DNA of 64,000 nucleotides from Paratinospora sagittata (taxonomy: Eukaryota > Streptophyta > Magnoliopsida > Ranunculales > Menispermaceae): contig CM069601.1 of NCBI GenBank assembly GCA_035771175.1, forward strand, positions 6,833,001-6,897,000. Reading direction: 5' to 3'. A model generated the notes under the pieces. The model did no database searches. It saw nothing but the letters and a program-made list of their open reading frames with translations, and was not told the DNA's origin. The translations under genes and the position numbers were made by a program. Below are positions 8,473 through 64,000 of this stretch, piece after piece; position 1 is the first letter of the stretch; each line of letters begins with the position of its first letter.

Positions 8473-8509
8473 TTTGAAGTCCGCAAGCTTGTTCAATCCT
8501 CTATATAAG
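8473..8509 (+). promoter_or_regulatory. Pararetrovirus B promoter (conserved TTTGAAGTCCGC box and TATA box)
   Basis: TATATAA at 8503-8509 lies about 220 bases before the primer-binding site, as expected for the pregenomic-RNA promoter of a plant pararetrovirus. The 12-base box TTTGAAGTCCGC at 8473-8484 recurs exactly upstream of the TATA box of lineage A (46741-46730, minus strand). Confidence 0.6.
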
Positions 8510-8725
8510 GAGATCCTTTCTTCAGTTCAAGACAGGACCTAGTTACGAAGTTCAAGAGTCCCTTCCAGATCATGAGTCTTCTGTATTTTCTGAAGTTTGT
8601 TTTCGCAGTTGTTTATGTTTTCAGTTTGTATTTACATATCTTGTACTTAGAGTTTGTACTGTATGTTTGCCTAGGTGTTTAAAATATCCTAGAAGTCTAC
8701 TTGTTGTGATAGTAGAAACCCTTCA

Positions 8726-15689: not shown

Positions 15690-16020
15690 ATGTTAGGTTC
15701 GGTCGTGTCCTACCGAACCTATGATTTTTAGTGTTTTTTCATGGATTTACCCCATCAATCTGAAATTTACTCCTTTAGAACGCATTTGAATGTGTTTTGT
15801 GGGGTTTATTACGTTATTTGAATGGTGGGTGCACCATTTCACATCCTAAGAGGTCACCTCTTAGTGTTGACCAATGCACCGCCATTCCATTAACGTAATA
15901 AGCACCACAAAACACATTTAAATGCCTTCTAAAGTAGTAAAGTTTAGATTGATGGGACAAATCCTTGAAGAAACACCAAAAATCATAGATTCCGTAGGAC
16001 ACGACTAAACCTAACACTTT
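15690..16020. repeat. Imperfect 130-160-bp hairpin (foldback MITE-like)
   Basis: Arms at 15690-15830 and 15885-16020 are imperfect reverse complements. They share GTCGTGTCCTAC/GTAGGACACGAC, an AAAACACA-type block and a TTACGT centre. It could be a MITE or an inner palindrome of the surrounding element. Confidence 0.55.
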
Positions 16021-16690
16021 TAGTTTAGTTCTGTCCAACCATTGGCAGGACCGAACTGACAGTTTCAGGTTCGATCGGATAGGACTGAACTGAGAGCACA
16101 TGTTCGATCGGATAGGACCGAACAGAGAGCTTCGGTTCAAACTTGTGCAATTGAACCACAAGTCTTGGGTTTGGTCACGTAGAATCGAACTAAAGATGAA
16201 TTTCTTTTAAAAGTAGTTTTCAACCCCAAAAAAATAAAAAAAAAACATATAGTGATGTACGTCATCTTCACAATTTGAATCATTTGTCATAATGCTATCA
16301 TATGTGTTGAAGAGTAGAGTTTTTTGAATGCTTTTTGATTTAGTTTCTACCACACTAAAAGACCAAGAAAATGAAATTTAAAAAAAGATGTTTACCTTTT
16401 CAAAATGACTCTTAAAGATTTCAAAGAGAAATTAAAAGGAAGAAAATTTGTAGGAGAAAAAAGAAGATGAAAAGGGAAGAAGGCTTAGGGTTTTGGAAAG
16501 AAGATGAATGTGAGAATGGTGGTGGGTAAAGTTAGTAAATAGTTTGGAGATAAATAGAAACAAAAATTTATGCAAGGGCATTTTGGAAAAATCATAGAAG
16601 GGAAATATAGGAATTACTTTTTTGTGTGGGTAAGGATAGTGTTTAGTGGGGTATAAATAAAACTCCCATAAAATGATTAATTAATATTTT

Positions 16691-29241: not shown

Positions 29242-30088
29242 ATGCAACCTACAAATTACTTTCATATACGATGTGACATTCCCAGACTAAAGGGTGATAA
29301 CTATAGGGTTGGGAAGGAGTGAATTCTCCTTCATTTGGGGTGGATGGACATTGATTATGCTATTAGGAAAGACGAGCCAGCCATTACTGCAACCAACACT
29401 CCAAATGAAATTGCTCTTTATGAACGATGGGAGCGATCCAATAGTCTCAGTGTGATGTTCATAAAGACCAAGATTTCTGCTGGTATTCATGGTTCAATTG
29501 ATCAGCATGACAAAGTCAAAGATTTACTGAAGGTTATTAATGAGCAATTTGAGACTTCAGATAAGGCACTTGCTAGCACCCTGATTATGTTTCCATCCTT
29601 AAGGCTCACCAATGTGAAAGATGTGCGTGAGCACATCATGCAAATAAGGGACATTGTGGCTCAATTGAAGACTCTTGAGGTGATGTCTGAGTCTTTCCTT
29701 GTGCACTATATATTGGACACCCTTCCACAAAAATATGGATACTTCAAAATATCCTACAAAAAATATAAGGTCAAATGGTCAATTAACGAGTTCTTTACCA
29801 TGTGTACATTTGTTCAAAAGGAAGGAAAGAAGGCTCATTATGGAATTGGGTGAGAGTGCATTGATGGTAACACAAAGGAAGAACCAAAACCAAGCTAAAA
29901 ACAAGTGGAAAGGTAAAATACCACCCCAAGGTGATATAAAAAAGGAATACAAATGTTTCTTCTACAAAAAGAAGCGACACATGAAGAAGGATTACACCAA
30001 ATTTCAAAAATGGCTTAAGAAGAAAGGTAATCCAATGTCATTTGTTTTTTATGAATCTAATATGGTTGATGTTATTTATAACACGTGA
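29242..30088 (+). pseudogene. Copia T1 gag pseudogene
   Basis: An ATG at 29242 opens gag (IPRLKGDNYRV near 29278), but a TGA at 29320-29322 cuts it after 26 codons. The frame continues from 29335 to 29853 with the gag core (YERWERSNSLSVMFIKTKIS near 29420 and SLRLTNVKDVREHIMQIRDIV near 29600). A frame change near 29830 leads into 29845-30088, with the lysine-rich region and a broken zinc knuckle (CFFYKKKRHMKKDY, which lacks the second and third cysteines). It is inactive. Confidence 0.8.
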
Positions 30089-30640
30089 TGGATTGATTCT
30101 GGTTCAACAATTCATTATTTGAATACCTTGTAGGGTATACGAAACCTAAAGAAGCCAGTGGGAAGTGAGCAATACGTTTATTCAGGAAACAAGATGCATT
30201 TACATGTAGAAGCCATTGGACATGAAGTTTAACTTTAAGTAGTGGTTTTATTTTGAATTCAGAAAAGACTTTTTATATTCTTAGTTTTTCTAAAATTTTT
30301 ATTTTAGTATCAAGACTTGTACCTTTTGGTTATTCCTTTAACGTTTCAGAAACATCTTTCAGTTTATTTTATAAAATTGATCCTGTTGGGAATGGTACAT
30401 TATCTGATGGTTTTTTCTCTATTAATTTGCAAAATGATACTACTTATGAAGGTATGGATGTTCTTATTGGTACTACACGATGTGTTATGAATGAAGATTC
30501 CTCTATGTTGTGCCACCACATATTAGGACATATCTCCATAGATAGAATTAAAAAAATAGTGAATCATGGAATATTTAGTACTTCAGATTTCATTGATTTT
30601 CAAACTTGTGTGGATTGTATTAAGAGAAAGCAATCAACCA
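30089..30640 (+). pseudogene. Copia T1 protease and GAG-pre-integrase remnant
   Basis: After the gag stop, WIDSGSTIHYLNTL (near 30092) is the aspartic-protease active site. It is followed by stops. The frame 30253-30640 carries the GAG-pre-integrase region, with LCHHILGHISIDRIKK and the CVDCIKRKQ cysteine pair. The coding match ends at about 30640. The last 253 bp (30388-30640) are repeated, with differences, at 36821-37073. Confidence 0.75.
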
Positions 30641-30999
30641 ACTTCCCTTTAGATCTAGTTGTTGTTGAAGCTCCATCTACATATGGCTAAGATTTAGGTC
30701 GTAGTGTATGTTGGTCCACCCAAAAGGAGGGTGAATTGGGTGCGATGGTCAATTTTAAATATCTCTTCCAATAACTTAGTGATGTGCATAAATATATTGG
30801 AACTGATTGCAAAATTAGAACTCAAACTAAATTGCAAACGTGAGACACACAAGATTTATAGTGGTTCGGCTAAGCCTACGTCCACTACCTAATCTCCCGA
30901 TTATGATTTTCTCAATCCACTAACTGATTCTCTTACGAGTGAGAACCAAACCGTTACAACTACCCTTTTACAAGTTAAAGGCAAACCTATCCTTTCACG

Positions 31000-38649: not shown

Positions 38650-39411
38650 ACGAAGGGGAACAAAGGACTCGCGGCCAAATTTGATGTGCTGATAAGCTAT
38701 TTTTGCTATTTTTCGTCTGGAAATTGATCTTTAACTAGTGTATGACGATTCTAGCAGAGTAATTTTAGCTATGGGAGCTGTTTTACGGTATTTTCAAAAT
38801 CAAAATTTTTATCCAACTTGAATGAAAATTTGTTCGAAAGGTGAAAAAATACTCCCTAGACTGTAGGATCCCCGGATATATGGTTAGATTTCATTTATTT
38901 GTTCATTTGGAATTTTTATGGCTGTTGGAAGTTAGAGTTTATATTAGAAAGCTTTTGAATCATATCAAAACCAGATGAAACTCCAGTTTAAGGCTATAGA
39001 ATGGAAGAATGAACTGTTATGAGTCCATCGATGCTCATTTCATGAATTTTGGAAACCGTTTGACAATTTTAGTTAAAATTTATATGTGTCCAATGAATAG
39101 TGATGTGAACTGTACTGTGATTATATCCAGTGAATAAAATAGAATTGGAATCCAATGAAACTTCGGTTTGAGATCATAGAATCGTAGATAACTGAATTTT
39201 GGACTTTTCGATACTAAGATTGTGATTTTTGGATATAATTTGATATTTTTAGTAACGAAATATATGGTTTTGGTGAGTAAAATTTACTTTCGCGACCTCC
39301 GCGAATGTGTAAAACTTTAGTAAAATACCTGTCAAAGGTAGTAGAATGGTAGTATGACTGATTTTACACGTGTCGATGTGGACAAAATAATTTTAAGAAT
39401 GTATTAAGGAG

Positions 39412-39423
39412 TGGTATCAGAGA
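39412..39423 (+). other. Primer-binding site, pararetrovirus A plus copy
   Basis: TGGTATCAGAGA differs by its last base from the canonical TGGTATCAGAGC, which is present in the minus copy. Confidence 0.8.
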
Positions 39424-39858
39424 CATCTTTTGTGTCCCGGGGTAATATTATGTTAAGTTTGTTCTGGTTGTTTATTCCAATCAATCCTTTTGGTTTTATT
39501 GTTATAATCCTCTTAGGTATCTTGACGTGTGTTTGTTTACATACTGTTATTATCATCCTCGAACATCTTCTTCGTATTTAAAGTATGTCTTTATTAAGTC
39601 ATCTTCCTTTGTGGTTAATAATTGTTCTAATTATTCTTGCTATCTTATTTTGTGGTTTACTTCGTCTATGCTTTGCCTGTTACATATGTGATGCAGTCGA
39701 AGTTGATGATTAACTGAGTACTAGATTTTTCTAATTGGTTTTGGTCCTTAATAGAAGCAGAGGAATCTATTTTTCACCAGTTTTCTCCTTTGGATATCAA
39801 AGACGAGGTCTTGACGGGCCAGGAGAGCCGACGTAAGACAAAAGGTCTGTAAGTATCC
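39424..39858 (+). promoter_or_regulatory. Pararetrovirus A 5' leader with conserved hairpin
   Basis: The leader carries a CTTTG-GATAT-CAAAG stem-loop at 39788-39802 and a GCCAGGAGAGCCG block near 39819. Both are also found, with changes, in lineage B. The minus copy has the same leader at 53899-54333. Confidence 0.55.
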
Positions 39859-42800
39859 ATGGAACCTTTTTGTGATAGTCCCCCTTCATCTTCTACGTCC
39901 GACCCTAGTCCGATTTTAAAATCTTCCTCTTTTAATTTTTCAAGTCTTCCTGAGTCATGTATTAAACAAGCGTCTAAAATTGATGATTTAGTCGAAGTAA
40001 CTCATATCCCAGCAGATAGTAAAGTTTCTGAAACAATTCCTCCTTTGTTAAACCCCTACTGGTTATTTACAAAAAAGTCTCAGTCTTTTAGTACTTCTGT
40101 TAAAAAACTTATTAGTCGTAAGAGTCCTCCTATTAAGGAATACATACAAAGTACTGCTCTTACCCACTGTACTCTTGAGTCTACTATGCAAGAACAATAT
40201 GTAACTCTTGAGTTTGAACCATCGTTCATCCGTCACTGGTTGGCTAATGGTTATACCCATCTCCATATGGGTGCTATCCGTTTAGTTCTATCATATCATG
40301 GTCGAGGTGACCTACCCATGTATGCACGTATTGCTCTGCTTGATACGAATCTTCTTTCATATGAACATGCTTGTATTGGAACAGTCATCACTACACTTAG
40401 TCATGGATCTATGGTCTTTACCATCACTCCAGACTTCAACGTCTGTTTAAAGGATCCTACTTTGCCTACTCGATTTAAAGTCCAGATTCAATTTTCTGGA
40501 GTTCAACATCGGCAGGATAGTATTATGGCAACTCTCCATCATCAGATGGCATTCCGCCTTCAAGATCATGCTATCCACCTCCGAACTCAAAAACCGACAG
40601 GTACGATCATGGCCTTTGTTCATGATAATGATATTCCTACAATTGTTCAGATACCAAAGCAGATTCCCCAGCGGGAACTCCGTCACATGTTACCATTAAC
40701 ATGGTTCACCAATTATGAACGGTTTCTACAACGTTCTGAACCTGTTACTAGTGTAACTTGTCCCCTTCTAAAGAAACAAGCTGATGGTGCTGTCAAGATA
40801 TCTTTTGATTCTCTGAAGCAATCCACAGACAGTCTACCTGTTCACCATTCAATGATGGTACAACCTGTTTCTACTCATGAACCAGCTGAAGATCCTCATC
40901 TTCATTCTTTCCACTCTGATGGACATCCAGTGTATCATTCTCATATTGATGGTCATTTCATTTGGGATTGTGCCCCTGAGATGTGCAAACTTGGTTGCAC
41001 ATGTATCGATGAACTCGAATATGATGCTTGGTTAGATGATCTTGATTCTCCTTATGATGATTTCTCTCGACAACGCAAAATCAAGAAAAAGAAGAAGATT
41101 CCTGTCTTCTCTTCTTGCCGCTCATCTATTAAGCATTATAAAGAACCTCCAGCTCCACCTGCAGCTCCAATGGTTCCTCCTTGTTATCCAATTGGCTCAT
41201 ATGATCAGAATTTTCCTCCTCTTACTAGAGTGACAGATCCTACACATCAGACTACTGCTAAACCATTTGTTTCTCTCAATGAGATTCGGTCAGATGGTAC
41301 TCCAAAGCCGCTCACATCTGCTGAAGAAGTATTGAATTGGCAAACAAAAAATGCTATTGTCCAAAATAGTTATCTTCAACAGATTGATGAACATCTTAAT
41401 TCTCTCACTATAACAACGACCAGTCTTGTCCGCAATACAGATATCCAAGCTGCTATCAGTCAGAAATATTATACTGAACTTCAAACGAAGATTCAAGAAT
41501 TGGATACTCTTCTCCGGTATTATTTACAACAGAATATCACTGGTCCTAATTTTGAGGCTGCTGAGAGAGAAATCCGATATTTGAAAGAACAACTTTCTTA
41601 TGTCACTACTGATCTACATAAGCTCCAAACACCAACAGCTCCTGTGTTTCCTGAAGCTTATCCTATGTCTTTAGTCAGGTCGTCATTCCCTTCTCCGCCA
41701 ATTTTCCAGAACTTACCACCTCCTTTACCTCAAACTAATCCTCAGTCCGTTTTACTTCAGACCCTCATGTTAGCAAAAAACCTCACGAAACCTCAAATGT
41801 CTCCACAATCACCGATTACTCCTTTTTCGGTTCCACCTGTTGCTACAACTCCACCACAGCCACCAGCCAACATACATCCTCAACCTAGAGGCCCTAGACC
41901 TATTTTTGGTGATAAAGGTAAGGCACCTATGCCTTCCTCACCATTTGTGCCCCTAGTACCTGCACACTTACCTATCTCCCAACAACCAATCCTACCAGGA
42001 CCACTTGCAACTAGAGATCCACCCTCTCCACAACCACCTCCGAGTCATCCTATCATACCTTATGACGACTTCAATTATGTCACACCTATTGAAGACCTTG
42101 CTCGTTTTGAATCCCTCTCTTTGGGATCTACAGAATCAGACAATAATGCTGATGCTCTTACCAAAGACTCATCTAATTCAGCTTTATCAGACTTATCTGC
42201 TACAGATTCCTACCAGATGGATATATCTGCTCTTGCTCAGATACATATGGCTGATGACCCTTCTTCATCTCAAAACCAGCCACAACCTTTTGATGAAGAG
42301 GTCGATATGCGTGATCCAGCTAATCAATCGCCAGCACAAGACCAAGCTCCTAATCCTCAACAATTCTTTAACAGAAATAGTAATGGTCCTTGGTTTTCTC
42401 TTGAAGACATCCCTTATGAGCAATGGCGCTCAAAGATCTTAACTTGGGCTGCTTGGATGTCAAACCAAATGATGGCTGACCGAACATCTAATGCAATCAT
42501 CTCTGATTTTATATCAAGATGCACTGGATTTGTTAGAGATTGGTTTTCTTCTCTTGGTGAATATCGCATGCTTCAGCTCACTCAGCTATCTATTGTGGAT
42601 TTCTATAATGTCCTTATTCGGGAATTCGTTGGTGATAGTGGTATCCTGGAGAAAAAATACAAACAAGAATATTTCACAATGAAATGTTGTTCTCTCCGGA
42701 AAAAAGACCTCTATCGGCATTTTACTCGTATGCTCCAGCGTTATCATCTCCTTGGTGGTTATGATAAAACAGATCTGAAACATACTTTTATTGCCTCACT

Positions 42801-45800
42801 AGCACAAGAAATTCACCCCAAATTAAATCGTCTTCTCAAAGCTCTCGGTAGACCATTGGAACAATTGTCTCTTGCTGAAATCTTCCAGCAACTCCTTGAA
42901 GCCATTGAGAAAAATTGTGAATTAAGGCGCATCATTGCAGAATCTCAAACTTCATCTTTTTATAGCTCAAATATCTGTGATAAGAAGTATCTTGAAATTG
43001 GATGCAAGTCCAAATGTGCATGCCCTCCTCACAAAAAGAAAAATCCGAAATTCTGGCGTTTTCACAAGAAGAATCCTCAGAAGCCTTCAAAGTTTTCTAA
43101 GCAACAGCGTTGAAAGAAAAAACGGCGTCTTCGCTACTTCAAAAGAAGAACAACTCCTCCTAAATCTGCTCGCTGTTATATATGTAAGAAACCTGGACAT
43201 TTTGCAAAACAGTGTCCTGACAAGAAGAAAGGCCAGCATCTTATTCAACAGATTCAGCTCTCTTATTCATTACAAGATGACCAAGATATTGAATCTGTCT
43301 TTTCTGAACAAGATTCGCCTGATAACAGTACTCTCTTTGCTTACCAAGAAGCTTCTTCTGATGATGATCCTAATTCTTCTGCATCAGACAATGATGATTA
43401 TATTGGCATGATCCAACTCTACCGCCCTCCGGCCATGGCTACAACCCATGTCATGCCCTATGCCGAAATATCCATTCTCCCTACAAAATTTGATAATCCT
43501 GTCAAGGTAATTGGATATTTTGATACCGGTGTTTTTAAGAGTATGATGAATCCTCGTATCCTTCCCGATACATTTTGGAAATCTCATACTGAATCTTTCA
43601 AAGCTGCTAATAATGAGATTTTCCAGACCCATCTGATTACTGCTAGGAAGATTGGTCTGAAATTCTTCCCAAATATCATTATCTGGACACACATTCTAGG
43701 CTGTGATCTACCCGATAAGGATATTCTCTTTGGAATGGACCTCTATTCAAAATCAAAATTTAGAATTCTACCTCATGGAATCTCTTATCAGAATCAGACC
43801 CTTCCATATACAACTATTCCTAAGTTGTATACAATTCAAGACATTCCATCCTACCACGATAAACTTAAGTCTTGTTTCAGTGAATCACACAAGACTTTTA
43901 CGAACCCTCATCCCTTATGGAAGAATTCTCAGTTTTATGTCCATCTCCCATTTAAGCTGAATGAAGATATCAATCCGACCAAGGCCATTCACCCTGGAAT
44001 GCCTCCTGAAGAACTTGCCCTAGCAAGGCAAGAATGTGAAGAATTACTATCACAAGGCTTAATCGAGCCTACTACTTCTGATTGGGCTTGCCAAGCCTTT
44101 TACGTCAACAAAAGAGCTGAACTCAAACGTGGCAAGAAACGTCTTGTTATCAATTACAAGCCGTTAAATATCTTTCTCAAGGATGATAAGTTTCCTTTAC
44201 CGAAGATCTCTTCCCAGCTTACCTTACTTTCAGGATCCACTATCTATAGTAAATTTGATCTGAAAGCAGGATTTTGGCAACTGGGCATCCATCCTGATGA
44301 TTGATCGAAGACAGCTTTCTGCATACCCAATGCTCATTATCAATGGACTGTCATGCCTTTCGGCTTGAAAGTCGCGCCGTCCTTATTTTAGAAAGCTATG
44401 ACACGTATATATGCCTCCATCTTATCAACAACTCTTATTTATATTGATGATATCTTGCTCTTTTCTAAGACTGAAGATGACCATCACCGACTTATTTCTC
44501 AGTTCTTAGACATAACTCAACAACATGGTATTATGCTTTCCGAGAAGAAGAGTATTCTATGCACATCCGAAATTGATTTTCTTGGTATGAAATTTTTTAA
44601 TGGTGTCTATCAGCCTGGTTCTCATATTGCTGTGGAACTACTGCAATTCCCCGACTCTCACTTATCTGTTAAACAACTTCAGCAATTTCTTGGTATTATC
44701 AATTATCTACGGATGTTTATTCCTCATATCTCTCGGCATACATCAGTTTTATCTTCTTTATTAAAGAAAGATCCACCACCATGGCAATCTATACATACTG
44801 ATGTTGTTCAAGTTCTTAAGCAGATCTGTCAGAACCCTCCTCCTTTAGTGATTCCTAGCACTGGTTCACTAATATTACAGACGGATGCTTCTGATCTTTA
44901 CTGGGGTGTTGTTCTCCTTGAACATAAAGATTCCACTGATTCTATTTGTGGATATCACAGTGGACAATTTTCAGCATCTGAACTCCATTACCATATTACA
45001 ATTAAAGAAGTCCTTGCAGTTAAATATGGTATTATGAAGTTCGCATTTTTCTTAAGGCCTGCTCACTTTAACATCCAAATGGATAATTCCTCATTTCCCA
45101 AAATGTTGGAATTCCGGAACAAGATGGTTCCCTCTGCTCAACTTCTTCGTCTCCAGGAATGGTTTACTTAATTCCAGTTTACAGTTAAACGTATTCCCGA
45201 AACTAAGAACGTTTTGGCTGATTTTCTATCCAGACCTATCCAAAAACCCAAATCTCCCCAGATTTCACTATTCCATAATGGTCTTAGTCTACCACTATTA
45301 ATCCAGCCCAATACTATTCCTAAAACTCAGCCTATCCAAGTTATTCACGCCCATGGTATTTTCCCTCTCATCGGTGCCATTTTTCCTCCTAATTTACCTA
45401 AGCCCACAACTGCTTATGAAGTCCAAACTTATGCTCAACAACACCTTTTTGAGTTCGCCCATAACTATTTCATGGACTTTCCAGCCCATCTTCATCCTAA
45501 TTCGTTTCATCAAACCAAACCCTACTTATTCCTATTTCACCTTCGTCCCGACATATCTGAAAAGTTCTTCTGGTATTTATGGTGTATTTCTTGCTTATAC
45601 AAAATAGCTTTAACATTTATACCCTCTGAAATACAGCATTACTTTCAGTCACATGATACATCTCTTCTAGATCGTTGCATGGATCTTTTTGCTCCACGAC
45701 AAACCTGGTTACGTCATGTTTCTGATATCTGCCAGCAACGACCACACCGTCTTCATGCTATATATATTGGTTACCAACCATTCTCCGATTCATCTCAAGG

Positions 45801-46395
45801 GCTTGTTGCAGAACATTACCTCCAAGAGTTTCAGACTTACTCTTGCCATCTTACAGAAGCAGTCCTCTCAGGAGTCCGATGATTTTTAGAAGAAATTAAT
45901 GGTCCTTCACCACCAAGGTCTCAAACCATTATTGGACCACATGAATTCATTCCTCCCACTCAACTGGATGAATTAATTTCCAATCTAGTCGCTCCTGATG
46001 TTCCTTCTCTGCAATTCAGAGATCCTCCAGAACGATCTCCCAGTCCTTCACCACTCAGACAACGCCTCAGTGATTCTCCACTGAATTATGAAGATCTCTA
46101 TGACTGTCAACAACAACAGGACATAGAATATCACAATCAAGTTCTTCAAGGTTTTCTTCCATCACCAAACTTTCGAGATCCTCCAAGAAGAACTCAACGA
46201 CGTATAAACGATCCACCTCTTTCTGACACTGAGATTCTTGAATGTCAGCAAGCTCAAGACTTTGAAGACAATGCTCTTATTGCCTTGGGTGTTCGATCCC
46301 CTCCAACTACTGATCATCAAGACGACTGGCTCGACAATTTTGATACAGGTGACCCAGATGTAGATATGGAAACCCAGTGTGATACTTCTCCATAA
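39859..46395 (+). pseudogene. Pararetrovirus A polyprotein, plus copy, five in-frame stops
   Basis: A single frame of 2178 codons runs from ATG 39859 to TAA 46393-46395 with no frameshift. In order it holds: a 30K-type movement domain (about residues 95-290); a coiled-coil-like region (about 492-600); a proline-rich linker (about 640-760); a capsid region (about 830-1085); a CCHC zinc knuckle (1106-1119); an aspartic protease with DTG at 1222; RT with YIDD at 1528-1531; RNase H with an aspartate at 1676; and a C-terminal extension of about 380 residues. Stops occur at codons 1085 (TGA), 1482 (TGA), 1511 (TAG), 1771 (TAA) and 2008 (TGA). It is therefore inactive. The layout matches petuviruses and florendoviruses. 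Confidence 0.85.
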
Positions 46396-46430
46396 TCTCC
46401 CCTCTCGTGTTTGTGCAAGCACTTTGTATC

Positions 46431-46535
46431 ATGCGGCCTCCTCTTTCTCATCTTTCTCAAGCTCTTCGTAATTTCCTACACATGGATGATGATGAGCACC
46501 AACCACATCAGTTTAATCAGTATCCAGTCATACAA
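46431..46535 (+). pseudogene. Pararetrovirus A ORF2, plus copy, truncated
   Basis: ATG 46431 starts the same small protein as in the minus copy (MRPPLSHLSQALRNFLHMD). After about 34 codons, at 46533-46535, the sequence switches to the inverted intergenic end of the minus copy. The two copies are fused here tail to tail. Confidence 0.75.
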
Positions 46536-46683
46536 TACAAGATTATCTTACAATACAGAGTATAAACAAGATGACTCTTACGATGATTCTGGAAACAAAA
46601 ACTTGGAAGATCAACTTCAAACACTTACTTACAAAATTAGATACTAAACATATTTCTACCTTGAGTTCTAACAAATGAACTCT

Positions 46684-46741
46684 CTTATTTATAAGCATAC
46701 AGACACGGACTTAAGACATTTTCAATTCCGCGGACTTCAAA
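46684..46741 (-). promoter_or_regulatory. Pararetrovirus A promoter (TTTGAAGTCCGC box and TATAAATAAG)
   Basis: On the minus strand TATAAATAAG (46693-46684) follows TTTGAAGTCCGC (46741-46730). The same 12-base box lies upstream of the lineage B TATA box. The position, after ORF2 and before the primer site of the circular genome, fits the single pregenomic promoter. Confidence 0.6.
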
Positions 46742-46876
46742 TGGGTTGGAATCCGTAGACAGCTAGAAGTCATTGAGCTGGCTTGAAGATAAGGTCGACT
46801 TGATGGAAAGACATGCACTCACAAAGTGAAGAGACATAAAAGCAAAGATGTTTTATCTGTACATAAAGTGGACGCG

Positions 46877-47326
46877 TCATGTTGATTTGTCTTCTTGTGA
46901 TGATTGGGGGACAAATGTGGGGACCACTGTAGAAGTGGATGTGCTTGCTGAGTCAGAAGATAAGGAGGAATCTTCAAGACGTCGCATCAATGAGTCAGGT
47001 GTCTGGAGTGGAGATGATTCTTGGGCGATGTTGATGTCTTCCATGATGTCAGCCAAGTATGGGTCGAGTTGTTGTTGGAACAGGAGACGAGCACGTTGGA
47101 TTCGTCGGAGAACATCAAGTCTAGTTGCCGGAGAGGAGAATGATAGATCTATGTTGGAGAGTCGTTGGAGCATCCGTCGAGCGTCACGGAATCGTCGAAG
47201 GCGGAGAAGAGCAAGTTCTTTGCGTATGATTGGATACTGATTAAACTGATGTGGTTGGTGCTCATCATCATCCATGTGTAGGAAATTACGAAGAGCTTGA
47301 GAAAGATGAGAAAGAGGAGGCCGCAT
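46877..47326 (-). CDS. Pararetrovirus A ORF2, unknown function
   Basis: ATG at 47326 opens 149 codons to a stop at 46877-46879, starting 35 bases after the polyprotein stop. The protein has an N-terminal His/Asp patch (HMDDDEHQPHQF), an arginine-rich helical middle with repeated RR and LL pairs, and an acidic, Ser/Thr-rich tail. I recognise no domain. The Arg-rich, heptad-like middle (LRLRRFRDARRML) could be an amphipathic helix. A small ORF after the polyprotein separates florendoviruses from petuviruses as I recall, and supports that placement. It is intact in this copy. Confidence 0.65.
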   Translation of the reverse strand: MRPPLSHLSQALRNFLHMDDDEHQPHQFNQYPIIRKELALLRLRRFRDARRMLQRLSNIDLSFSSPATRLDVLRRIQRARLLFQQQLDPYLADIMEDINIAQESSPLQTPDSLMRRLEDSSLSSDSASTSTSTVVPTFVPQSSQEDKST

Positions 47327-47361
47327 GATACAAAGTGCTTGCACAAACACGAGAGGGAAGA

Positions 47362-50300
47362 TTATGGAGAAGTATCACACTGGGTTTCCATATCTACAGC
47401 TGGGTCACCTGTATCAAAATTGTCGAGCCAGTCGTCATGATGATCAGTAGGTGGAGGGGATCGAACACCCAAGGCAATAAGAACATTGTCTTCAAAGTCT
47501 TGAGCTTGCTGACATTCAAGAATCTCAGTGTCAGAAAGAGGTGGATCGTTTATACGTCGTTGAGTTCTTCTTGGAGGATCTCGGAAGTTTGGTGATGGAA
47601 GAAAACCTTGAAGAACTTGATTGTGATATTCTATGTCCTGTTGTTGTTGACAGTCATAGAGATCTTCATAATTCAGTGGAGAATCACTTAGGCGTTGTCT
47701 GAGTGGTGAAGGATTGGGAGATCGTTCTGGAGGATCTCTGAATTGCGGAGAAGGAACATCAGGAGCGACTAGATTGGAAATTAATTCATCCAGTTGAGTG
47801 GGAGGAATGAATTCATGTGGTCCAATAATGGTTTGAGACCTTGGTGGTGAAGGACCCTTAATTTCTTCTAAAAAACGTCGGACTCCTGAGAGGACTGCTT
47901 CTGTAAGATGGCAAGAGTAAGTCTGAAACTCTTGGAGGTAATGTTCTGCAACAAGCCCTTGAGATGAATCAGAGAATGGTTGGTAACCAATATATATAGC
48001 ATGAAGACGGTGTGGTCGTTGCTGGCAGATATCAGAAACATGACGTAACCAGGTTTGTCGTGGAGCAAAAAGATCCATGCAACGATCTAGAAGAGATGTA
48101 TCATGTGACTGAAAGTAATGCTGTATTTCAGAGGGTATAAATGTTAAAGCTATTTTGTATAAGCAAGAAATACACCATAAATACCAGAAGAACTTTTCAG
48201 ATATGTCGGGACGAAGGTGAAATAGGAATAAGTAGGGTTTGGTTTGATGAAACGAATTAGGATGAAGATGGGCTGGAAAGTCCATGAAATAGTTATGGGC
48301 GAACTCAAAAAGGTGTTGTTGAGCATAAGTTTGGACTTCATAAGCAGTTGTGGGCTTAGGTAAATTAGGAGGGAAAATGGCACCGATGAGAGGTAAAATA
48401 CCATGGGCGTGAATAACTTGGATAGGCTGAGTTTTAGGAATAGTATTGGGCTGGATTAATAGTGGTAGACTAAGACCATTATGGAATAGTGAAATCTGGG
48501 GAGATTTGGATTTTTGGATAGGTCTGGATAGAAAATCAGCCAAAACGTTCTTAGTTCCGGGAATATGTTTAACTGTAAACTGGAATTGAGTAAGCCATTC
48601 CTGGAGACGAAGAAGTTGAGCAGAGGGAACCATCTTGTTCCGGAATTCCAACATTTTGGGAAATGAGGAATTATCCATTTGGATTTCAAAGTGAGCAGGC
48701 CTTAAGAAAAAGGCGAACTTCATAATACCATATTTAACTGCAAGGACTTCTTTAATTGTAATATGGTAATGGAGTTCAGATGCTGAAAATTGTCCACTGT
48801 GATATCCACAAATAGAATCAATGGAATCTTTATGTTCAAGGAGAACAGCACCCCAGTAAAGATCAGAAGCATCCGTCTGTAATATTAGTGAACCAGTGCT
48901 AGGAATCACTAAAGGATGAGGGTTCTGACAGATCTGCTTAAGAACTTGAACGGCATCAGTATGTATAGATTGCCATGGTGGTGGATCTTTCTTTAATAAA
49001 GAAGATAAAACTGATGTATGCCGAGAGATATGAGGAATAAACAACCGTAGATAATTGATAATACCAAGAAATTGCTGAAGTTGTTTAACAGATAAGTGAG
49101 TGTCGGGGAATTGCAGTAGTTCCACAGCAATATGAGAACCAGGCTGATAGACACCATTAAAAAACTTCATACCAAGAAAATCAATTTCGGATGTGCATAA
49201 AATACTCTTCTTCTCGGAAAGCATAATACCATGTTGTTGAGTTATGTCTAAGAACTGAGAAATAAGTCGGTGATGGTCATCTTCAGTCTTAGAAAAGAGC
49301 AAGATACCATCAATATAAATAAGAGTTGTTGATAAGATGGAGGCATATATACGTGTCATAGCTTTTTGAAATAAGGATGGCGCGACTTTCAGGCCGAAAG
49401 GCATGACAGTCCATTGATAATGAGCATTGGGTATGCAGAAAGCTGTCTTGGATCGATCATCAGGATGGATGCCCAGTTGCCAAAATCCTGCTTTCAGATC
49501 AAATTTACTATAGATAGTGGATCCTGAAAGTAAGGTAAGCTGGGAAGAGATCTTCGGTAAAGGAAACTTATCATCCTTGAGAAAGATATTTAACGGCTTG
49601 TAATTGATAACAAGACGTTTCTTGCCACGTTTGAGTTCAGCTCTTTTGTTGACGTAAAAGGCTTGGCAAGCCCAATCAGAAGTTGTAGGCTCGATTAAGC
49701 CTTGTGACAGTAATTCTTCACATTCTTGCCTTGCTAGGGCAAGTTCTTCAGGAGGCATTCCAGGGTGAATGGCCTTGGTCGGATTGATATCTTCATTCAG
49801 CTTAAATGGGAGATGGACATAAAACTGAGAATTCTTCCATAAGGGATGAGGGTTCGTAAAAGTCTTGTGTGATTCACTGAAACAAGACTTAAGTTTATCT
49901 TGGTAGGATGGAATGTCTTGAATTGTATACAACTTAGGAATAGTTGTATATGGAAGGGTCTGATTCTGATAAGAGATTCCATGAGGTAGAATCCTTAATT
50001 TTGATTTTGAATAGAGGTTCATTCCAAAGAGAATATCCTTATCGGGTAGATCACAGCCTAGAATGTGTGTCCATATAATGAGATTTGGGAAGAATTTCAG
50101 ACCGATCTTCCTAGCAGTAATCAGATGGGTCTGGAAAATCTCATTATTAGCAGCTTTGAAAGATTCAGTATGAGATTTCCAAAATGTATCGGGAAGGATA
50201 CGAGGATTCATCATACTCTTAAAAGCACCAGTATCAAAATATCCAATTACCTTGATAGGATTATCAAATTTTGTAGGGAGAATGAATATTTCGGCATAGG

Positions 50301-53300
50301 GCATGACATGGGTTGTAGCCATGGCCGGAGGGCGGTAGAGTTGGATCATGCCAATATAATCATCATTGTCTGATGCAGAAGAATTAGGATCATCATCAGA
50401 AGAAGCTTCTTGGTAAGCAAAGAGAGTACTGTTATCAGGCGAATCTTGTTCAGAAAAGATAGATTCAATATCTTGGTCATCTTGTAATGAATAAGAGAGT
50501 TGAATCTGTTGAATAAGATGCTGGCCTTTCTTCTTGTCAGGACACTGTTTTGCAAAATGTCCAGGTTTCTTACATATATAACAGCGAGCAGATTTAGGAG
50601 GAGTTGTTCTTCTTTTGAAGTAGCGAAGACGCCGTTTTTTCTTCCAACGCTGTTGCTTAGAAAACTTTGAAGGCTTCTGAGGATTCTTCTTGTGAAAACG
50701 CCAGAATTTCGGATTTTTCTTTTTGTGAGGAGGGCATGCACATTTGGACTTGCATCCAATTTCAAGATACTTCTTATCACAGATATTTGAGCTATAAAAA
50801 GATGAAGTTTGAGATTCTGCAATGATGCGCCTTAATTCACAATTTTTCTCAATGGCTTCAAGGAGTTGCTGGAAGATTTCAGCAAGAGACAATTGTTCCA
50901 ATGGTCTACCGAGAGCTTTGAGAAGACGATTTAATTTGGGGTGAATTTCTTGTGCTAGTGAGGCAATAAAAGTATGTTTCAGATCTGTTTTATCATAACC
51001 ACCAAGGAGATGATAACGCTGGAGCATACGAGTAAAATGCCGATAGAGGTCTTTTTTCCGGAGAGAACAACATTTCATTGTGAAATATTCTTGTTTGTAT
51101 TTTTTCTCCAGGATACCACTATCACCAACGAATTCCCGAATAAGGACATTATAGAAATCCACAATAGATAGCTGAGTGAGCTGAAGCATGCGATATTCAC
51201 CAAGAGAAGAAAACCAATCTCTAACAAATCCAGTGAATCTTGATATAAAATCAGAGATGATTGCATTAGATGTTCGGTCAGCCATCATTTGGTTTGACAT
51301 CCAAGCAGCCCAAGTTAAGATCTTTGAGCGCCATTGCTCATAAGGGATGTCTTCAAGAGAAAACCAAGGACCATTACTATTTCTGTTAAAGAATTGTTGA
51401 GGATTAGGAGCTTGGTCTTGTGCTGGCGATTGATTAGCTGGATCACGCATATCGACCTCTTCATCAAAAGGTTGTGGCTGGTTTTGAGATGAAGAAGGGT
51501 CATCAGCCATATGTATCTGAGCAAGAGCAGATATATCCATCTGGTAGGAATCTGTAGCAGATAAGTCTGATAAAGCTGAATTAGATGAGTCTTTGGTAAG
51601 AGCATTAGCATTATTGTCTGATTCCGTAGATCCCAAAGAGAGGGATTCAAAACGAGCAAGGTCTTCAATAGGTGTGACATAATTGAAGTCGTCATAAGGT
51701 ATGATAGGATGACTCGGAGGTGGTTGTGGAGAGGGTGGATCTCTAGTTGCAAGTGGTCCTGGTAGGATTGGTTGTTGGGAGATAGGTAAGTGTGCAGGTA
51801 CTAGGGGCACAAATGGTGAGGAAGGCATAGGTGCCTTACCTTTATCACCAAAAACAGGTCTAGGGCCTCTAGGTTGAGGATGTATGTTGGCTGGTGGCTG
51901 TGGTGGAGTTGTAGCAACAGGTGGAACCGAAAAAGGAGTAATCGGTGATTGTGGAGACATTTGAGGTTTGGTGAGGTTTTTTGCTAACATGAGGGTCTGA
52001 AGTAAAACGGGCTGAGGATCAGTTTGAGGTAAAGGAGGTGGTAATTTCTGGAAAATTGGCGGAGAAGGGAATGACGACCTGACTAAAGACATAGGATAAG
52101 CTTCAGGAAACACAGGAGCTGTTGGTGTTTGGAGCTTATGTAGATCAGTAGTGACATAAGAAAGTTGTTCTTTCAAATATCGGATTTCTCTCTCAGCAGC
52201 CTCAAAATTAGGACCAGTGATATTTTGTTGTAAATAATACCGGAGAAGAGTATCCAATTCTTGAATCTTCGTTTGAAGTTCAGTATAATATTTCTGACTG
52301 ATAGCAGCTTGGATATCGGTATTGCGGACAAGACTGGTCGTTGTTGTAGTGAGAGAATTAAGATGTTCATCAATCTGTTGAAGATAATTATTTTGGACAA
52401 TAGCATTTTTTGTTTGCCAATTCAATACTTCTTCAACAGATGTGAGCGGCTTTGGAGTACCATCTGACCGAATCTCATTGAGAGAAACAAATGGTTTAGC
52501 AGTAGTCTGGTGTGTAGGATCTGTCACTCTAGTAAGAGGAGGAAAATCCTGATCATATGAGCCAATTGGATAACAAGGAGGAACCATTGGAGCTGCAGGT
52601 GGAGCTGGAGGTTCTTTATAATGCTTAATAGATGAGCGGCAAGAAGAGAAGACAGGAATCTTCTTCTTTTTCTTGATTTTGCATTGTCGAGAGAAATCAT
52701 CATAAGGAGAATCAAGATCATCTAACCAAGCATCATATTCGAGTTCATCGATACATGTGCAACCAGGTTTGCACATCTCAGGGGCACAATCCCAAATGAA
52801 ATGACCATCAATATGAGAATGCTACACTGGATGTCCATCAGAGTGGAAACAATGAAGAGGAGGATCTTCAGCTGGTTCATGAGTAGAAACAGGTTGTACC
52901 ATCATTGAATGGTGAACAGGTAGACTGTCTGTGGATTGCTTCAGAGAATCAAAAGATATCTTGACAGCACCATCAGCTTGTTTCTTTAGAAGGGGACAAG
53001 TTACACTAGTAACAGGTTCAGAACGTTGTAGAAACCGTTCATAATTGGTGAACCATGTTAATGGTAACATGTGACGGAGTTCCCGCTGGGGAATCTGCTT
53101 TGGAATCTGAACAATTGTAGGAATATCATTATCATGAACAAAGGCCATGATCGTACCTGTCGGTTTTTGAGTTCGGAGGTGGATAGCATGATCTTGAAGG
53201 CGGAATGCCATCTGATGATGGAGAGTTGCCATAATACTATCCTGCCGATGTTGAACTCCAGAAAATTGAATCTGGACTTTAAATCGAGTAGGCAAAGTAG

Positions 53301-53898
53301 GATCCTTTAAACAGACGTTGAAGTCTGGAGTGATGGCAAAGACCATAGATCCATGACTAAGTGTAGTGATGACTGTTCCAATACAAGCATGTTCATATGA
53401 AAGAAGATTCGTATCAAGCAGAGCAATACGTGCATACATGGGTAGGTCACCTCGACCATGATATGATAGAACTAAACGGATAGCACCCATATGGAGATGG
53501 GTATAACCATTAGCCAACCAGTGACGGATGAACGATGGTTCAAACTCAAGAGTTACATATTGTTCTTGCATAGTAGACTCAAGAGTACAGTGGGTAAGAG
53601 CAGTACTTTGTATGTATTCCTTAATAGGAGGACTCTTACGACTAATAAGTTTTTTAACAGAAGTACTAAAAGACTGAGACTTTTTTGTAAATAACCAGTA
53701 GGGGTTTAACAAAGGAGGAATTGTTTCAGAAACTTTACTATCTGCTGGGATATGAGTTACTTCGACTAAATCATCAATTTTAGACGCTTGTTTAATACAT
53801 GACTGAGGAAGACTTGAAAAATTAAAAGAGGAAGATTTTAAAATCGGACTAGGGTCGGACGTGGAAGATGAAGGGGGACTATCACCAAAGGGTTCCAT
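47362..53898 (-). pseudogene. Pararetrovirus A polyprotein, minus copy, one stop and RT active-site change
   Basis: The frame runs from ATG at 53898 to TAA at 47362-47364, 2178 codons as in the plus copy, with no frameshift. A single TAG at 52822-52824 (codon 359, just after the movement domain) splits it into open parts of 358 and 1804 codons. The RT catalytic motif reads YIDG instead of YIDD (codon 1531 at 49306-49308), which removes a metal-binding aspartate. Zinc knuckle, protease DTG and RNase H landmarks are intact. The few differences from the plus copy suggest recent insertion or gene conversion. Product: MP-CP-AP-RT-RH polyprotein. Confidence 0.85.
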
Positions 53899-54333
53899 GG
53901 ATACTTACAGACCTTTTGTCTTACCTCGGCTCTCCTGGCCCGTCAAGACCTCGTCTTTGATATCCAAAGGAGAAAACTGGTGAAAAATAGATTCCTCTGC
54001 TTCTATTAAGGACCAAAACCAATTAGAAAAATCTAGTACTCAGTTAATCATCAACTTCGACTGCATCACATATGTAACAGGCAAAGCATAGACGAAGTAA
54101 ACCACAAAATAAGATAGCAAGAATAATTAGAACAATTATTAACCACAAAGGAAGATGACTTAATAAAGACATACTTTAAATACGAAGAAGATGTTCGAGG
54201 ATGATAATAACAGTATGTAAACAGACACACGTCAAGATACCTAAGAGGATTATAACAATAAAACCAAAAGGATTGATTGGAATAAACAACCAGAACAAAC
54301 TTAACATAATATTACCCCGGGACACAAAAGATG

Positions 54334-54345
54334 GCTCTGATACCA
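54334..54345 (-). other. Primer-binding site, pararetrovirus A minus copy
   Basis: The minus strand reads TGGTATCAGAGC, a perfect match to the tRNA-Met primer site. Upstream leader sequence (54346-54445), absent from the plus copy, is present here. Confidence 0.85.
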
Positions 54346-54438
54346 CTCCTTAGTGCTAGGATTTTAAACACCTATTACGGCACACAACACACTTAGTGTT
54401 ACAGGATTATCTTACAATACAGAGTATAAACAAGATGA

Positions 54439-54787
54439 CTCTTACCGAAGACTCATCTAATTCAGCTTTATCAGACTTATCTGCTACAGATTCCTACCAG
54501 ATGGATATATCTGCTCTTGCTCAGATACATATGGCTGATGACCCTTCTTCATCTCAAAACCAGCCACAACCTTTTGATGAAGAGGTCGATATGTGTGATC
54601 CAGCTAATCAATCGCCAGCACAAGACCAAGCTCCTAATCCTCAACAATTCTTTAACAAAAATAGTAATGGTCCTTGGTTTTCTCTTGAAGACATCCCTTA
54701 TGAGCAATGGCGCTCAAAGATCTTAACTTGGGCTGCTTGGATGTCAAACCAAATGATGGCTGACCGAACATTTAATGCAATCATCTC
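54439..54787 (+). pseudogene. Third pararetrovirus A piece: 349-bp capsid-region fragment
   Basis: This plus-strand stretch matches 42155-42503 almost base for base. It joins the end of the minus copy through the shared bases CTCTTACC and stops at 54787, where solo LTR S1 resumes. It looks like filler captured during end joining. Confidence 0.85.
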
Positions 54788-55238
54788 CAGTAGAAAAATA
54801 AAACTAAGAATTAATGAAAATATGAATTGGAAATTTATTTTCACTGTTCTTTCTTGTGAAAATATCTAGATTGACTACAGAAACGAGATAGTAGTTTCTT
54901 CATCTGCTTATGAGTCCTAAATTGAGTTGGAATCTAAATTCACAGAATGTGTATATGATCGTACATATCTATCATGTGAGAATTTGATTTGTGGAATGAA
55001 TGAGATGATTATCTATATATATATATATATATTGGATTTGATTTGTGGTATATCAGGGAAAAGTGTGAAATGTCCATTTTATGGGGAGATGCTGTCAGAA
55101 TTTCTATAAATTTTGGGAAGTATTGTGAATGTCTGTTGAGGCTGACAGTGTATTGTATACTGTATATAGGTATGTAAATTGTATAATACATTGTACTGGT
55201 CATGACGTCAACCTACGTCAGGGTGTCATGACAATGTA

Positions 55239-62257: not shown

Positions 62258-63237
62258 ATGTCGGTTACTTCCGAAACAGTGCAGAATGAAGAAGCAATTG
62301 ACAAACGGAGAAAGGAGAACTACCAAACATTTAGGCAGCATGCAGACTTGATGGAAAGAATTATTTGAAGTGGTCTCAGCTGGTGCGTACTTTTCTGAAG
62401 GGCAAAAGGAAATTAAGTCATTTTTTGGGCATTGCACCTACACTTGGAGATCCTAAGTTTATAGCGTGGGATAACGAAGATGCTTCTATAATGGCGTGGC
62501 TATGGAATTCAAGGACGCCAAACATTAGTGATACACGCATGTTTCTAACTACCGTCAAAGGCATTTGGGATGTCGTTCATCAGACCTATTCTAAGGCCCA
62601 TGATGCAGCCCAAGTGTATGAGATCAAAGTGAAAGTTGGAACAACAAAACAAGGCAACATGACGGTTACCGAATATGCCAATGTATTAAAAAACCTCTGG
62701 CAGAAACTTGACCATTATAGGTGTATTGAGACTAAATGCCCTGCAGATGCTGTAGTTTTAAAGAACTATATTGAGAAGGATCGGGTCTATGACTTCTTGG
62801 CTAGACTCAATGCAGAATTTGATCAAGTGAGAGTTCAAACTCTCAGCAAAGAGTTGCCAACTCTGAATGAGACTATCTCAGTTATCCGGACTGAAGAAAG
62901 CAGAAGAAGTGTTATGCTCACACCTCAAAAGATGGAAGGCTCAGCTATGGTTGCCAATCGGGGAAATGATCAGAAGACACACACTGCGCGCACTGAATCA
63001 TCAAAGGTCCCAAATCGAGACAATAGGGACAATTTATGGTGTACTTATTGTCAGAAGACTAGACATACCAGGGAGAAGTGTTGGAAACTTCATGGCAAGC
63101 CTTCAATTTCCAGTAAAGAATGGGCTACAAAGGAAGACAGCAGAAGACCAGTGGACAAGCACATCTGTCTACTGAACAAACAGTTGCAGACTCCCCGGTG
63201 CCAGACGGATTCATCCAAGACGACATTGAAAGATTGA
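62258..63237 (+). pseudogene. Copia T2 gag (slightly damaged)
   Basis: The natural start is ATG 62258 (MSVTSETVQNEEAID). A one-base frame change near 62350 separates it from the main open frame, which runs to 63237. That frame shows NYLKWSQLVRTFLKGK, then WDVVHQTYSKAHDAAQVYEIK and FLARLNAEFDQVRVQTLSKE, which are standard gag blocks. The zinc knuckle CTYCQKTRHTREKCWKLHG has the full CCHC pattern, although the usual glycine is replaced. It is younger than Copia T1. Confidence 0.75.
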
Positions 63238-63238
63238 A

Positions 63239-64000
63239 ATCTTTGCTTGGCACACTGGACAAACCCTCAGGTACCTGTTCATTGGCCCATTCAGGTAACT
63301 TTCCTATTTCTATTGGATTTAACGTCTCGGATAAGTCTTTTGCTAACTCTTGGGTTATAGATTCTAGTGTTACTGATCACATGACCAATTCCCCCAATAT
63401 ATTTCATACCTACAACCCATGTCCTAGTAGTCGGAAAATAGCCACAGCTGATGGATCCTTAACCACAGTTGTTGGTATAGGTGATGTTCACATTAGCCCC
63501 ACCCTTACACTCAGAAATGTTCTTCATGTTCCTAAACTATCTACTAATCTTATCTCTATTAAAAACTGACCCATGATCTGAGTTGTAATGTAATCTTCTT
63601 CCCTACTTACTGTGCATTTCAGGACCAGGACTTGGGGACGATGATTGGACATGCTAAGGAACAGGACGGGTTATATTACCTTAAGACACCAGTACATCCT
63701 ATCAAGAGTACCACTTCATTTATCTCCGAGCACAAATTTTCCAATAAAAAAAAGTTATGGCTCCATCATTGCCGCCTTGGCCATCCTTCTTTTCGAACCC
63801 TTAAAATTATGTTTTCTTTTTTGTTTAAGTCTCTCAATGTTGTAGATTTTTATTGTGAAGTGTGTGAACTTGCGAAACACAAGCGTATATCTTTTCCACT
63901 TAGTAATGAAAGAAGTTCAGATCCTTTTGATCTCATTTATAGTGATATTTGGGGTCCCTCTTCAATACCTAATGTTTCTGGAGCGCGATGGTTTGTGTTT
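63239..64000 (+). pseudogene. Copia T2 protease, GAG-pre-integrase and integrase start, cut by window end
   Basis: The frame 63120-63569 holds the protease, but its active site reads WVIDSSVTDHM, with Ser in place of the Gly of DSG. A frameshift near 63563 leads to the GAG-pre-integrase region (LWLHHCRLGHPS and CEVCELAKHKR) and the start of integrase (LIYSDIWGPS). The element continues beyond 64000. Confidence 0.75.

What the first reader, a model, noticed from the sequence alone, without database searches (positions are those of the whole stretch)
39405..54787. 15.4-kb pararetrovirus cluster: two nearly identical copies tail to tail plus a third scrap
The plus copy (39405-46535) and minus copy (46536-54445) form inverted arms of about 7.1 kb, separated only by the minus copy's intergenic region and the 3' part of its ORF2. 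Transcription across the junction from either side would give a very long hairpin RNA. Such a locus could feed 21-24-nt siRNAs against related viruses, or silence itself.
Basis: partly seen in the sequence, partly recalled or inferred. Interest (0 to 1): 0.9.

Follow-up and report, generated by a model that had tools for sequence, protein, structure and literature searches.

The report
Mirror-image pair of silenced viral fossils
A stretch of what is likely a plant genome holds two broken copies of a plant pararetrovirus, 98.8% identical over 7.1 kb, in mirror-image order; they were likely captured together, their mutations suggest that the host kept them chemically silenced, and if read through they would fold into double-stranded RNA of the kind that can trigger antiviral silencing.

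Summary
Plus arm 39405-46533 and minus arm 47224-54352 match over 7,129 nt at 98.81%, with 85 substitutions and no gap. The 690-nt loop belongs to the minus copy alone; a third fragment ends at 54787. The virus is petuvirus-like: its RT-RNase H groups with Citrus endogenous pararetrovirus in a clade of 18 of 38 rows. Both copies are broken: the ORF1 frame has 1 in-frame stop in the minus and 5 in the plus copy. Ends and joins suggest capture of at least three viral DNA molecules by end joining (inferred). New evidence: 30 of 55 transitions between the arms fall at CG/CHG sites against 15.3 expected (0 of 20,000 permutations), split 16:14 between arms; two controls show no excess. This resembles the CG/CHG methylation reported for endogenous petunia vein clearing virus. 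So 'it silences itself' has indirect support; 'it feeds siRNAs' stays untested. The expected viral promoter region lies in the loop and faces the plus arm, so it would make antisense RNA, not a hairpin. Inverted endogenous pararetroviruses that make siRNA are known from tomato.

The parts
39405..46533 (+). plus copy of the petuvirus-like pararetrovirus (left arm): starts 7 nt before the tRNA-Met primer site, lacks the last ~0.7 kb (3' part of ORF2 and intergenic region)
39412..39422 (+). primer-binding-site-like TGGTATCAGAG of the plus copy
   Evidence: motif recalled, found by pattern
46534..46540 (.). junction plus copy | minus copy; 2 nt unassigned, AATACA possibly templated filler (near-repeat 46528-46539 / 46546-46557)
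   Evidence: templating inferred
46534..47223 (-). loop of 690 nt present in the minus copy only: intergenic region and 3' part of ORF2
46541..46876 (-). intergenic stretch after the ORF2 frame = expected promoter region; TATAAATA at 46693 (minus strand), facing the plus arm
   Evidence: function inferred
46541..46581 (-). 3' member of the 41-nt terminal direct repeat of the minus copy
46877..47374 (-). ORF2 frame of the minus copy, 165 aa stop to stop, no homologue found
47224..54352 (-). right arm (part of the minus copy pairing with the plus copy)
47362..53904 (-). ORF1 frame of the minus copy: MP, CCHC coat region, D[TSA]G motif, RT, RNase H; 2,178 codons from the first ATG of the frame, one of them an in-frame stop
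46536..54445 (-). whole minus copy, about 1.006 viral units
54335..54345 (-). primer-binding-site-like TGGTATCAGAG of the minus copy
54405..54445 (-). 5' member of the 41-nt terminal direct repeat
54439..54445 (.). CTCTTAC shared by the end of the minus copy and the start of the scrap (7-nt microhomology)
54439..54787 (+). third viral fragment (part of the coat region; 54441-54787 corresponds to 42157-42503)

Best explanation
Two near-complete but broken copies of a petuvirus-like pararetrovirus lie tail to tail beside a third fragment; they were likely captured together as separate viral DNA molecules by end joining in a chromosome break, were then likely methylated at CG and CHG sites and left to decay, and would give hairpin or antisense RNA only if transcribed. 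Shown: the arrangement, the family, the broken ORF1 frames, the shared bases at the minus/scrap join, the end 7 nt from the primer site, and the CG/CHG excess of transitions shared about equally by the arms. Inferred: capture in one event by the plant's end joining, methylation as the cause of the excess, and that the locus is mostly silent. Predicted and untested: the intergenic promoter region in the loop, if active, would read leftwards and make RNA antisense to the plus copy; read-through from a flank would make a hairpin; either double-stranded RNA would be cut into 21-24-nt siRNAs that could match a related virus.
For: Different ends: plus copy from -7 to -743, minus copy from -100 round to -53, scrap 2745-3091 on the circular map with the primer site as 0. 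Chance that one of 6 random ends falls within 8 nt of the primer site: 0.013, the 8-nt limit being set after seeing the end. Caulimovirid DNA is discontinuous at that site (recalled). Minus/scrap join shares CTCTTAC. Near-repeat at the central join. Scrap is a third sequence: 4 of 347 positions differ where plus and minus agree. Near-neutral decay: 25 synonymous and 47 nonsynonymous differences and 6 arm-specific stop codons against 22.0/54.9/3.1 for 80 random hits. Derived residues in both arms of an RT piece (5 plus, 3 minus, 2 unclear of 10). Transitions per site: CG 11/274, CHG 19/511.5, CHH 25/2042; 30 of 55 at CG/CHG against 15.3 (sd 3.4) matched for codon position, 0 of 20,000 reach it; transversions (10 of 28 C/G states) and mirrored contexts (20 of 55) show no excess (P 0.40, 0.30); T/A state 16 plus, 14 minus. 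Proviral PVCV promoter in young petunia: nearly 100% CG/CHG and about 10% CHH methylation, episomal DNA unmethylated (PMC7496347, passages).
Against: No indel against 85 substitutions is odd for neutral decay: the seven non-viral repeat pairs found in the window show 55 gap openings per 287 substitutions. At an assumed indel:substitution ratio of 0.05, P(0) is 0.014; part of the divergence may therefore predate integration. Differences are uneven (29 and 56 in the two halves, P 0.0045), which could mean conversion between arms. The other viral pair in the window (5243-6344/6647-7750) shows no clear CG/CHG excess (7 of 18 transitions, P 0.61), and none of the seven non-viral pairs is significant (P 0.07 to 1.0), so the footprint rests on one pair. 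The primer-site coincidence is only P 0.013. Methylation is inferred from mutations, not measured. No empty site or host genome was available.
Confidence: 0.66

Rival explanations
1. The locus is an active silencing locus: it is transcribed through the centre, the RNA folds back, and DCL2/DCL3/DCL4 cut it into siRNAs that act against related viruses and copies, as in the tomato inverted-repeat endogenous caulimovirids.
For: 7.1-kb arms with 63 of 86 perfect runs of 22 nt or more; no AATAAA on the + strand between 39405 and 48995 or on the - strand between 54787 and 44762; published precedent in tomato and soybean as told in PMC10377300 section 16; many DCL2-dependent sRNAs that change in tomato hybrids map to endogenous pararetroviruses (PMC9124383, passages).
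Against: No expression or small-RNA data here; the expected promoter region faces antisense into one arm; CHH transitions (25 of 2,042 sites) are well below the CG and CHG rates, whereas lasting siRNA-directed methylation might raise them; in 1-month-old petunia the silent proviral PVCV promoter gave no detected small RNAs (PMC7496347, passages).
Confidence: 0.24
2. On origin alone: one copy was integrated and the inverted copy arose later by chromosomal inverted duplication.
For: The arms are 98.8% identical without a gap; the second viral pair in the window (5243-6344 / 6647-7750) could be such a fold-back.
Against: A fold-back copy should carry flanking sequence too, but the plus copy stops at -7 while the minus copy goes on to -100 and into the scrap; the plus copy starts next to the primer site; two extra breakpoints would be needed.
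Confidence: 0.14
3. The inverted pair is an assembly artefact.
For: Palindromes are hard to assemble (recalled), and no reads could be examined.
Against: A fold-back read artefact would give arms that differ by sequencing errors, mostly indels (recalled); here there are 85 substitutions, no gap, a near-even split of T/A states and a methylation-type context bias. The arms have different ends and the window holds no N. A wrong join of two real copies is not excluded.
Confidence: 0.05

Closest known systems
Citrus endogenous pararetrovirus (petuvirus-like)
   Same: RT-RNase H 63% and 59% identical to the two records P0139 and P0180; same starred clade, 18 of 38 rows; in P0139 the MP, second coat, AP-RT and RT-RH pieces align in the same order
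   Different: Only protein identity was measured, so the 80% nucleotide species threshold (PMC4241990) was not tested; the first coat piece found no match in P0139; its arrangement in Citrus was not studied here
Petunia vein clearing virus (Petuvirus) and its endogenous copies
   Same: Single long polyprotein of 2,179 aa (P0175) against 2,178 codons here; RT-RNase H 58%; the mutation footprint fits its CG/CHG methylation
   Different: PVCV falls outside the 18-row clade; ePVCV is described as head-to-tail concatemers (PMC10377300 section 15), here tail to tail and broken; the C-terminal piece 47365-48021 and ORF2 found no match in it or in the 8 other records compared
Tomato transcriptionally competent siRNA areas (rearranged endogenous caulimovirids in inverted repeat)
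   Same: Endogenous caulimovirid DNA in inverted repeat that could form hairpin RNA (review section)
   Different: Those are reported to yield 22-nt siRNA; here transcription and siRNA are untested. The original paper was not seen, only the review
Endogenous banana streak virus locus eBSGFV-7
   Same: Rearranged viral pieces in both orientations at one locus (PMC10377300 section 15)
   Different: A badnavirus, described there as able to give virus; here both copies carry in-frame stops
Florendovirus loci (Geering et al. 2014)
   Same: Compound insertions, more-than-unit-length copies, tRNA-Met start, proposed capture by end joining (PMC4241990 results section and part 1 of 2 of the discussion; passages)
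   Different: Their ORF1 is mostly 205-216 kDa with an ORF2 of 45-58 kDa; here ORF1 has 2,178 codons and ORF2 only 165 aa. No named florendovirus was in the comparison

Membership tests
Caulimoviridae (endogenous) | movement protein, CCHC coat region, RT and RNase H in this order | tested here: met
   Pfam MP 4e-15, zf-CCHC 1.1e-05, RVT_1 2e-24, RT_RNaseH 7.7e-18 on pieces of the minus copy
Caulimoviridae (endogenous) | aspartic protease between coat and RT | tested here: inconclusive
   No Pfam protease match at E <= 1; one D[TSA]G motif in the expected piece in both copies
Caulimoviridae (endogenous) | tRNA-Met primer-binding site upstream of ORF1 | tested here: met
   TGGTATCAGAG at 39412 (+) and 54345 (-); motif recalled
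Petuvirus / petuvirus-like | RT-RNase H groups with PVCV and Citrus endogenous pararetrovirus rather than with other genera | tested here: inconclusive
   Grouped with the Citrus virus (99/98, 18 of 38 rows); PVCV is outside that clade and no named florendovirus was in the tree
Petuvirus / petuvirus-like | single long polyprotein | tested here: met
   2,178 codons from the first ATG of the frame to a stop shared by both copies, though a 165-aa second frame follows
Florendovirus | ORF2 of 45-58 kDa after an ORF1 of 205-216 kDa (most members) | tested here: not met
   The frame after ORF1 is 165 aa; definition from PMC4241990, which also names exceptions
Tomato-type siRNA-producing inverted repeat (TSA) | endogenous caulimovirid in inverted repeat | tested here: met
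Tomato-type siRNA-producing inverted repeat (TSA) | transcription and dense 22-nt siRNA | not testable with these tools
   no RNA or small-RNA data on hand
Capture by end joining (T-DNA-like) | microhomology or templated filler at joins | tested here: inconclusive
   7 shared bases at minus/scrap; possible 6-nt templated filler at the centre; no shared bases seen at the left host join; right host join not judgeable without the empty site

The most novel reading that the evidence does not exclude
A viral promoter trapped in the loop of its own mirror-image pair turns the locus into an antisense generator: it reads leftwards out of the loop and makes RNA complementary to the viral genome, pairs with the RNA of any invading or re-activated relative, and so protects the plant without needing a host promoter or a hairpin.
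Probability: 0.12. Interest if true: 0.7.

Novelty: new member of a known kind. Interest (0 to 1): 0.42.

Why it matters
It is a near-full-length tail-to-tail pair of a petuvirus-like element with a context-resolved mutation record. If the CG/CHG reading is right, the sequence alone tells that the locus was methylated during its history in the genome, and that the two arms decayed at about the same pace. That makes a standing question testable at one locus: do inverted endogenous pararetroviruses act as siRNA sources against viruses, or are they first of all silenced relics? The promoter region in the loop gives a sharp prediction (antisense RNA of one arm) that differs from the hairpin model.

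Tried and rejected
Florendovirus as the genus was my first guess; ORF2 size and the grouping with Citrus endogenous pararetrovirus speak against it, though no named florendovirus was compared. Purifying selection between the arms (two selected viral lineages) was tested and not supported: codon changes are close to random and there are 6 arm-specific stops, P 0.09 for 6 or more by chance; the first random set used 76 hits, the frame has 80 differences, so it was repeated with 80. ORF2 as a route to the genus failed: 91 candidates, none at E <= 0.001. Relatives in viral contigs: none with one protein (5 pattern matches); with an alignment 1 of 89 stretches, 25% identical, not used. Insertion into a TA repeat: the only TA run of 18 nt in the window starts 227 nt right of the scrap; by my reckoning it is too short for the published search settings, so not claimed. 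Rfam: 0 matches at gathering threshold; ARAGORN: 0 tRNA genes. Host name: not found. Paper searches (listings and starts of abstracts) listed no paper whose title or abstract start tells of a near-full-length tail-to-tail petuvirus pair; they are too narrow to say that none exists. One search took 4 of the 7 non-viral repeat pairs; the other 3 were added.
Full report
Check of the observation. A self-comparison of the window gives an inverted match of 7,129 columns between 39405-46533 and 54352-47224, 98.808% identical, with no gap; base by base there are 85 substitutions, 55 transitions and 30 transversions. The 690 bases between the arms (46534-47223) belong to the minus copy only. They hold the 3' part of the ORF2 frame (47374-46877, 165 aa) and the intergenic region. 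The minus copy is a little longer than one viral unit: 54405-54445 and 46541-46581 are identical (41 nt), 7,864 nt apart. A third fragment runs to 54787, in the sense of the plus copy; its 54441-54787 matches 42157-42503. At 4 of 347 positions it differs from both copies where they agree; no other difference occurs there.

What the virus is. Pieces of the minus copy, searched apart, match Pfam movement protein, zinc knuckle, reverse transcriptase and RNase H in this order. The RT piece has 584 relatives at E <= 0.001 among 3,774 candidates; of the 120 listed, those with an organism name are nearly all flowering plants. Its best solved relative is chain 8r0s_A, named 'Enzymatic polyprotein', 1.4e-83. 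A second search that allowed longer proteins listed 120 of 1,204, among them two records of Citrus endogenous pararetrovirus (63% and 59%) and one of petunia vein clearing virus (58%). In a maximum-likelihood tree of 38 rows (37 chosen by me from the 116 of 238 fetched proteins that span the piece, plus the window), the virus sits in a clade of 18 rows with the Citrus virus, support 99/98; petunia vein clearing virus is outside it. ORF1 has 2,178 codons from the first ATG of its frame, against 2,179 aa in the petunia record. Geering et al. 2014 state that a caulimovirid of Carrizo citrange, which I take to be this Citrus virus (recalled), groups apart from florendoviruses and much closer to petunia vein clearing virus (PMC4241990, section read). 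I call it petuvirus-like; the genus is not settled, because no named florendovirus was in the set. ORF2 has no relative found.

State of the copies. The ORF1 frame carries one in-frame stop in the minus and five in the plus copy; the stop that ends the frame is shared, and no indel separates the arms. The YxDD pattern of the RT was not found in the minus copy. The plus copy lacks the end of ORF2 and, but for 7 nt before the primer site, the intergenic region. Neither copy is intact.

How the cluster arose. With the primer site as zero on the circular map, the plus copy runs from -7 to -743, the minus copy from -100 right round to -53, and the scrap from 2745 to 3091. Viral DNA of this family is discontinuous at the primer site (recalled), so an end 7 nt away fits a linear viral molecule; the chance that one of six random ends lies within 8 nt is 0.013, a limit set after seeing the end. 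The minus copy and the scrap share CTCTTAC at their join. At the centre the bases TCATACAATACA recur as TCTTACAATACA 18 nt further on, which may be templated filler. At the left host join no shared bases are seen; the right host join cannot be judged without the empty site. A later inverted duplication of one copy would need to stop short of the end of the minus copy and of the scrap. I therefore favour capture of at least three viral molecules by end joining in one event, as proposed for endogenous caulimovirids in general (PMC10377300 section 12; PMC4241990 discussion, part 1 of 2). This is inference.

What happened afterwards. Between the arms the ORF1 frame shows 25 synonymous and 47 nonsynonymous differences and 6 arm-specific stop codons; 80 random hits would give 22.0, 54.9 and 3.1, with P 0.26 for 25 or more synonymous and P 0.09 for 6 or more stops. 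Of 10 residues that differ in a 400-aa RT piece, by a five-fold frequency rule 5 are derived in the plus copy (2 of them stops), 3 in the minus copy, 2 unclear. So both arms decayed without clear selection. The transitions have a context: 11 at 274 CG sites, 19 at 511.5 CHG sites and 25 at 2,042 CHH sites. Matched for codon position, 15.3 (sd 3.4) of 55 would be expected at CG or CHG; 30 are seen, and none of 20,000 permutations reaches that. Transversions (10 of 28 C/G states, P 0.40) and the same count with contexts read on the wrong side (20 of 55, P 0.30) show no excess. The T or A state lies in the plus arm 16 times and in the minus arm 14 times. This is what deamination of methylated cytosine in CG and CHG sites would leave, at an equal pace in both arms. 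Proviral petunia vein clearing virus in young plants is reported to be nearly fully methylated at CG and CHG and about 10% at CHH in its promoter, with unmethylated episomal DNA (PMC7496347, passages only). The divergence corresponds to about 0.46 to 0.92 million years at 1.3e-8 or 6.5e-9 changes per site per year (rates recalled, host unknown, so rough).

Results against this reading. There is no indel against 85 substitutions, while the seven non-viral repeat pairs of the window have 0, 3, 22, 12, 14, 1 and 3 gap openings against 31, 27, 115, 32, 36, 25 and 21 substitutions. The differences are uneven, 29 in one half and 56 in the other (P 0.0045), and one run of 591 bases is free of them (P 0.05). 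Some divergence may predate integration, or the arms may have exchanged sequence. The second viral pair in the window shows 7 of 18 transitions at CG/CHG (P 0.61), the scrap against the plus copy 3 of 4 (P 0.07), and none of the seven non-viral pairs is significant on its own (P 0.07 to 1.0). The footprint is therefore strong for the main pair only, and says nothing about whether inversion caused it.

What it could do. A transcript through the centre would pair over long perfect runs: 63 of 86 runs are at least 22 nt and hold 6,836 of 7,129 bases, the longest 591. No AATAAA occurs on the + strand from 39405 to 48995 or on the - strand from 54787 to 44762, so a read-through RNA from either side would meet its first such signal 1,771 nt into the second arm. 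[quoted passage not shown] Here 336 bases of that region, with TATAAATA at 46693 (P 0.022 by shuffling, for a motif picked after a looser TATA search; the window holds 18 such octamers on both strands), lie in the loop and face the plus arm. The other end of the minus copy keeps only 100 nt before the primer site and the plus copy 7. So the virus's own promoter, if alive, would make RNA antisense to the plus copy, not a hairpin. The review PMC10377300 (section 16) reports tomato endogenous caulimovirids in inverted repeat that give 22-nt siRNA able to degrade matching transcripts, and cases in soybean.

Verdict. A real inverted pair of petuvirus-like relics; a new member of a known kind. The added value is the mutation footprint and the placement of the promoter region in the loop. 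The odds given for the rivals overlap: the duplication rival concerns origin only.

Noticed in passing
5243-7750 (to about 9636): A second, different caulimovirid in the same window: arms 5243-6344 (-) and 6647-7750 (+), head to head, 97.55%, 1 gap, with a 302-nt centre from the AP-RT region. The right copy seems to run on through a primer-site-like motif at 8726 to a movement-protein piece at 9193-9636, 74% identical to the main virus.
   Followed up: partly
39405-54352: No indel against 85 substitutions between the arms, although stops and CG/CHG transitions accumulated; unexplained.
   Followed up: partly
46877-47374 (-): ORF2 frame of 165 aa; 91 candidates but no homologue at E <= 0.001. 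A frame of 201 aa at 7937-8542 holds a like place in the second virus but shows no similarity.
   Followed up: partly
2779-3273 and 9757-10620: Reverse-transcriptase pieces near the second virus: RVT_1 in the first, zf-RVT in the second, perhaps from non-LTR elements.
   Followed up: no
29323-30690 and 62335-63569: Copia-type gag and pol pieces, and a primer-site-like motif at 61503.
   Followed up: no
15666-16041: A region that matches its own reverse complement at 82% over 378 columns, perhaps a fold-back element.
   Followed up: partly
55014-55031: The longest TA run of the window (18 nt) lies 227 nt right of the cluster; such repeats are reported near endogenous florendoviruses, but this one is short.
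   Followed up: partly
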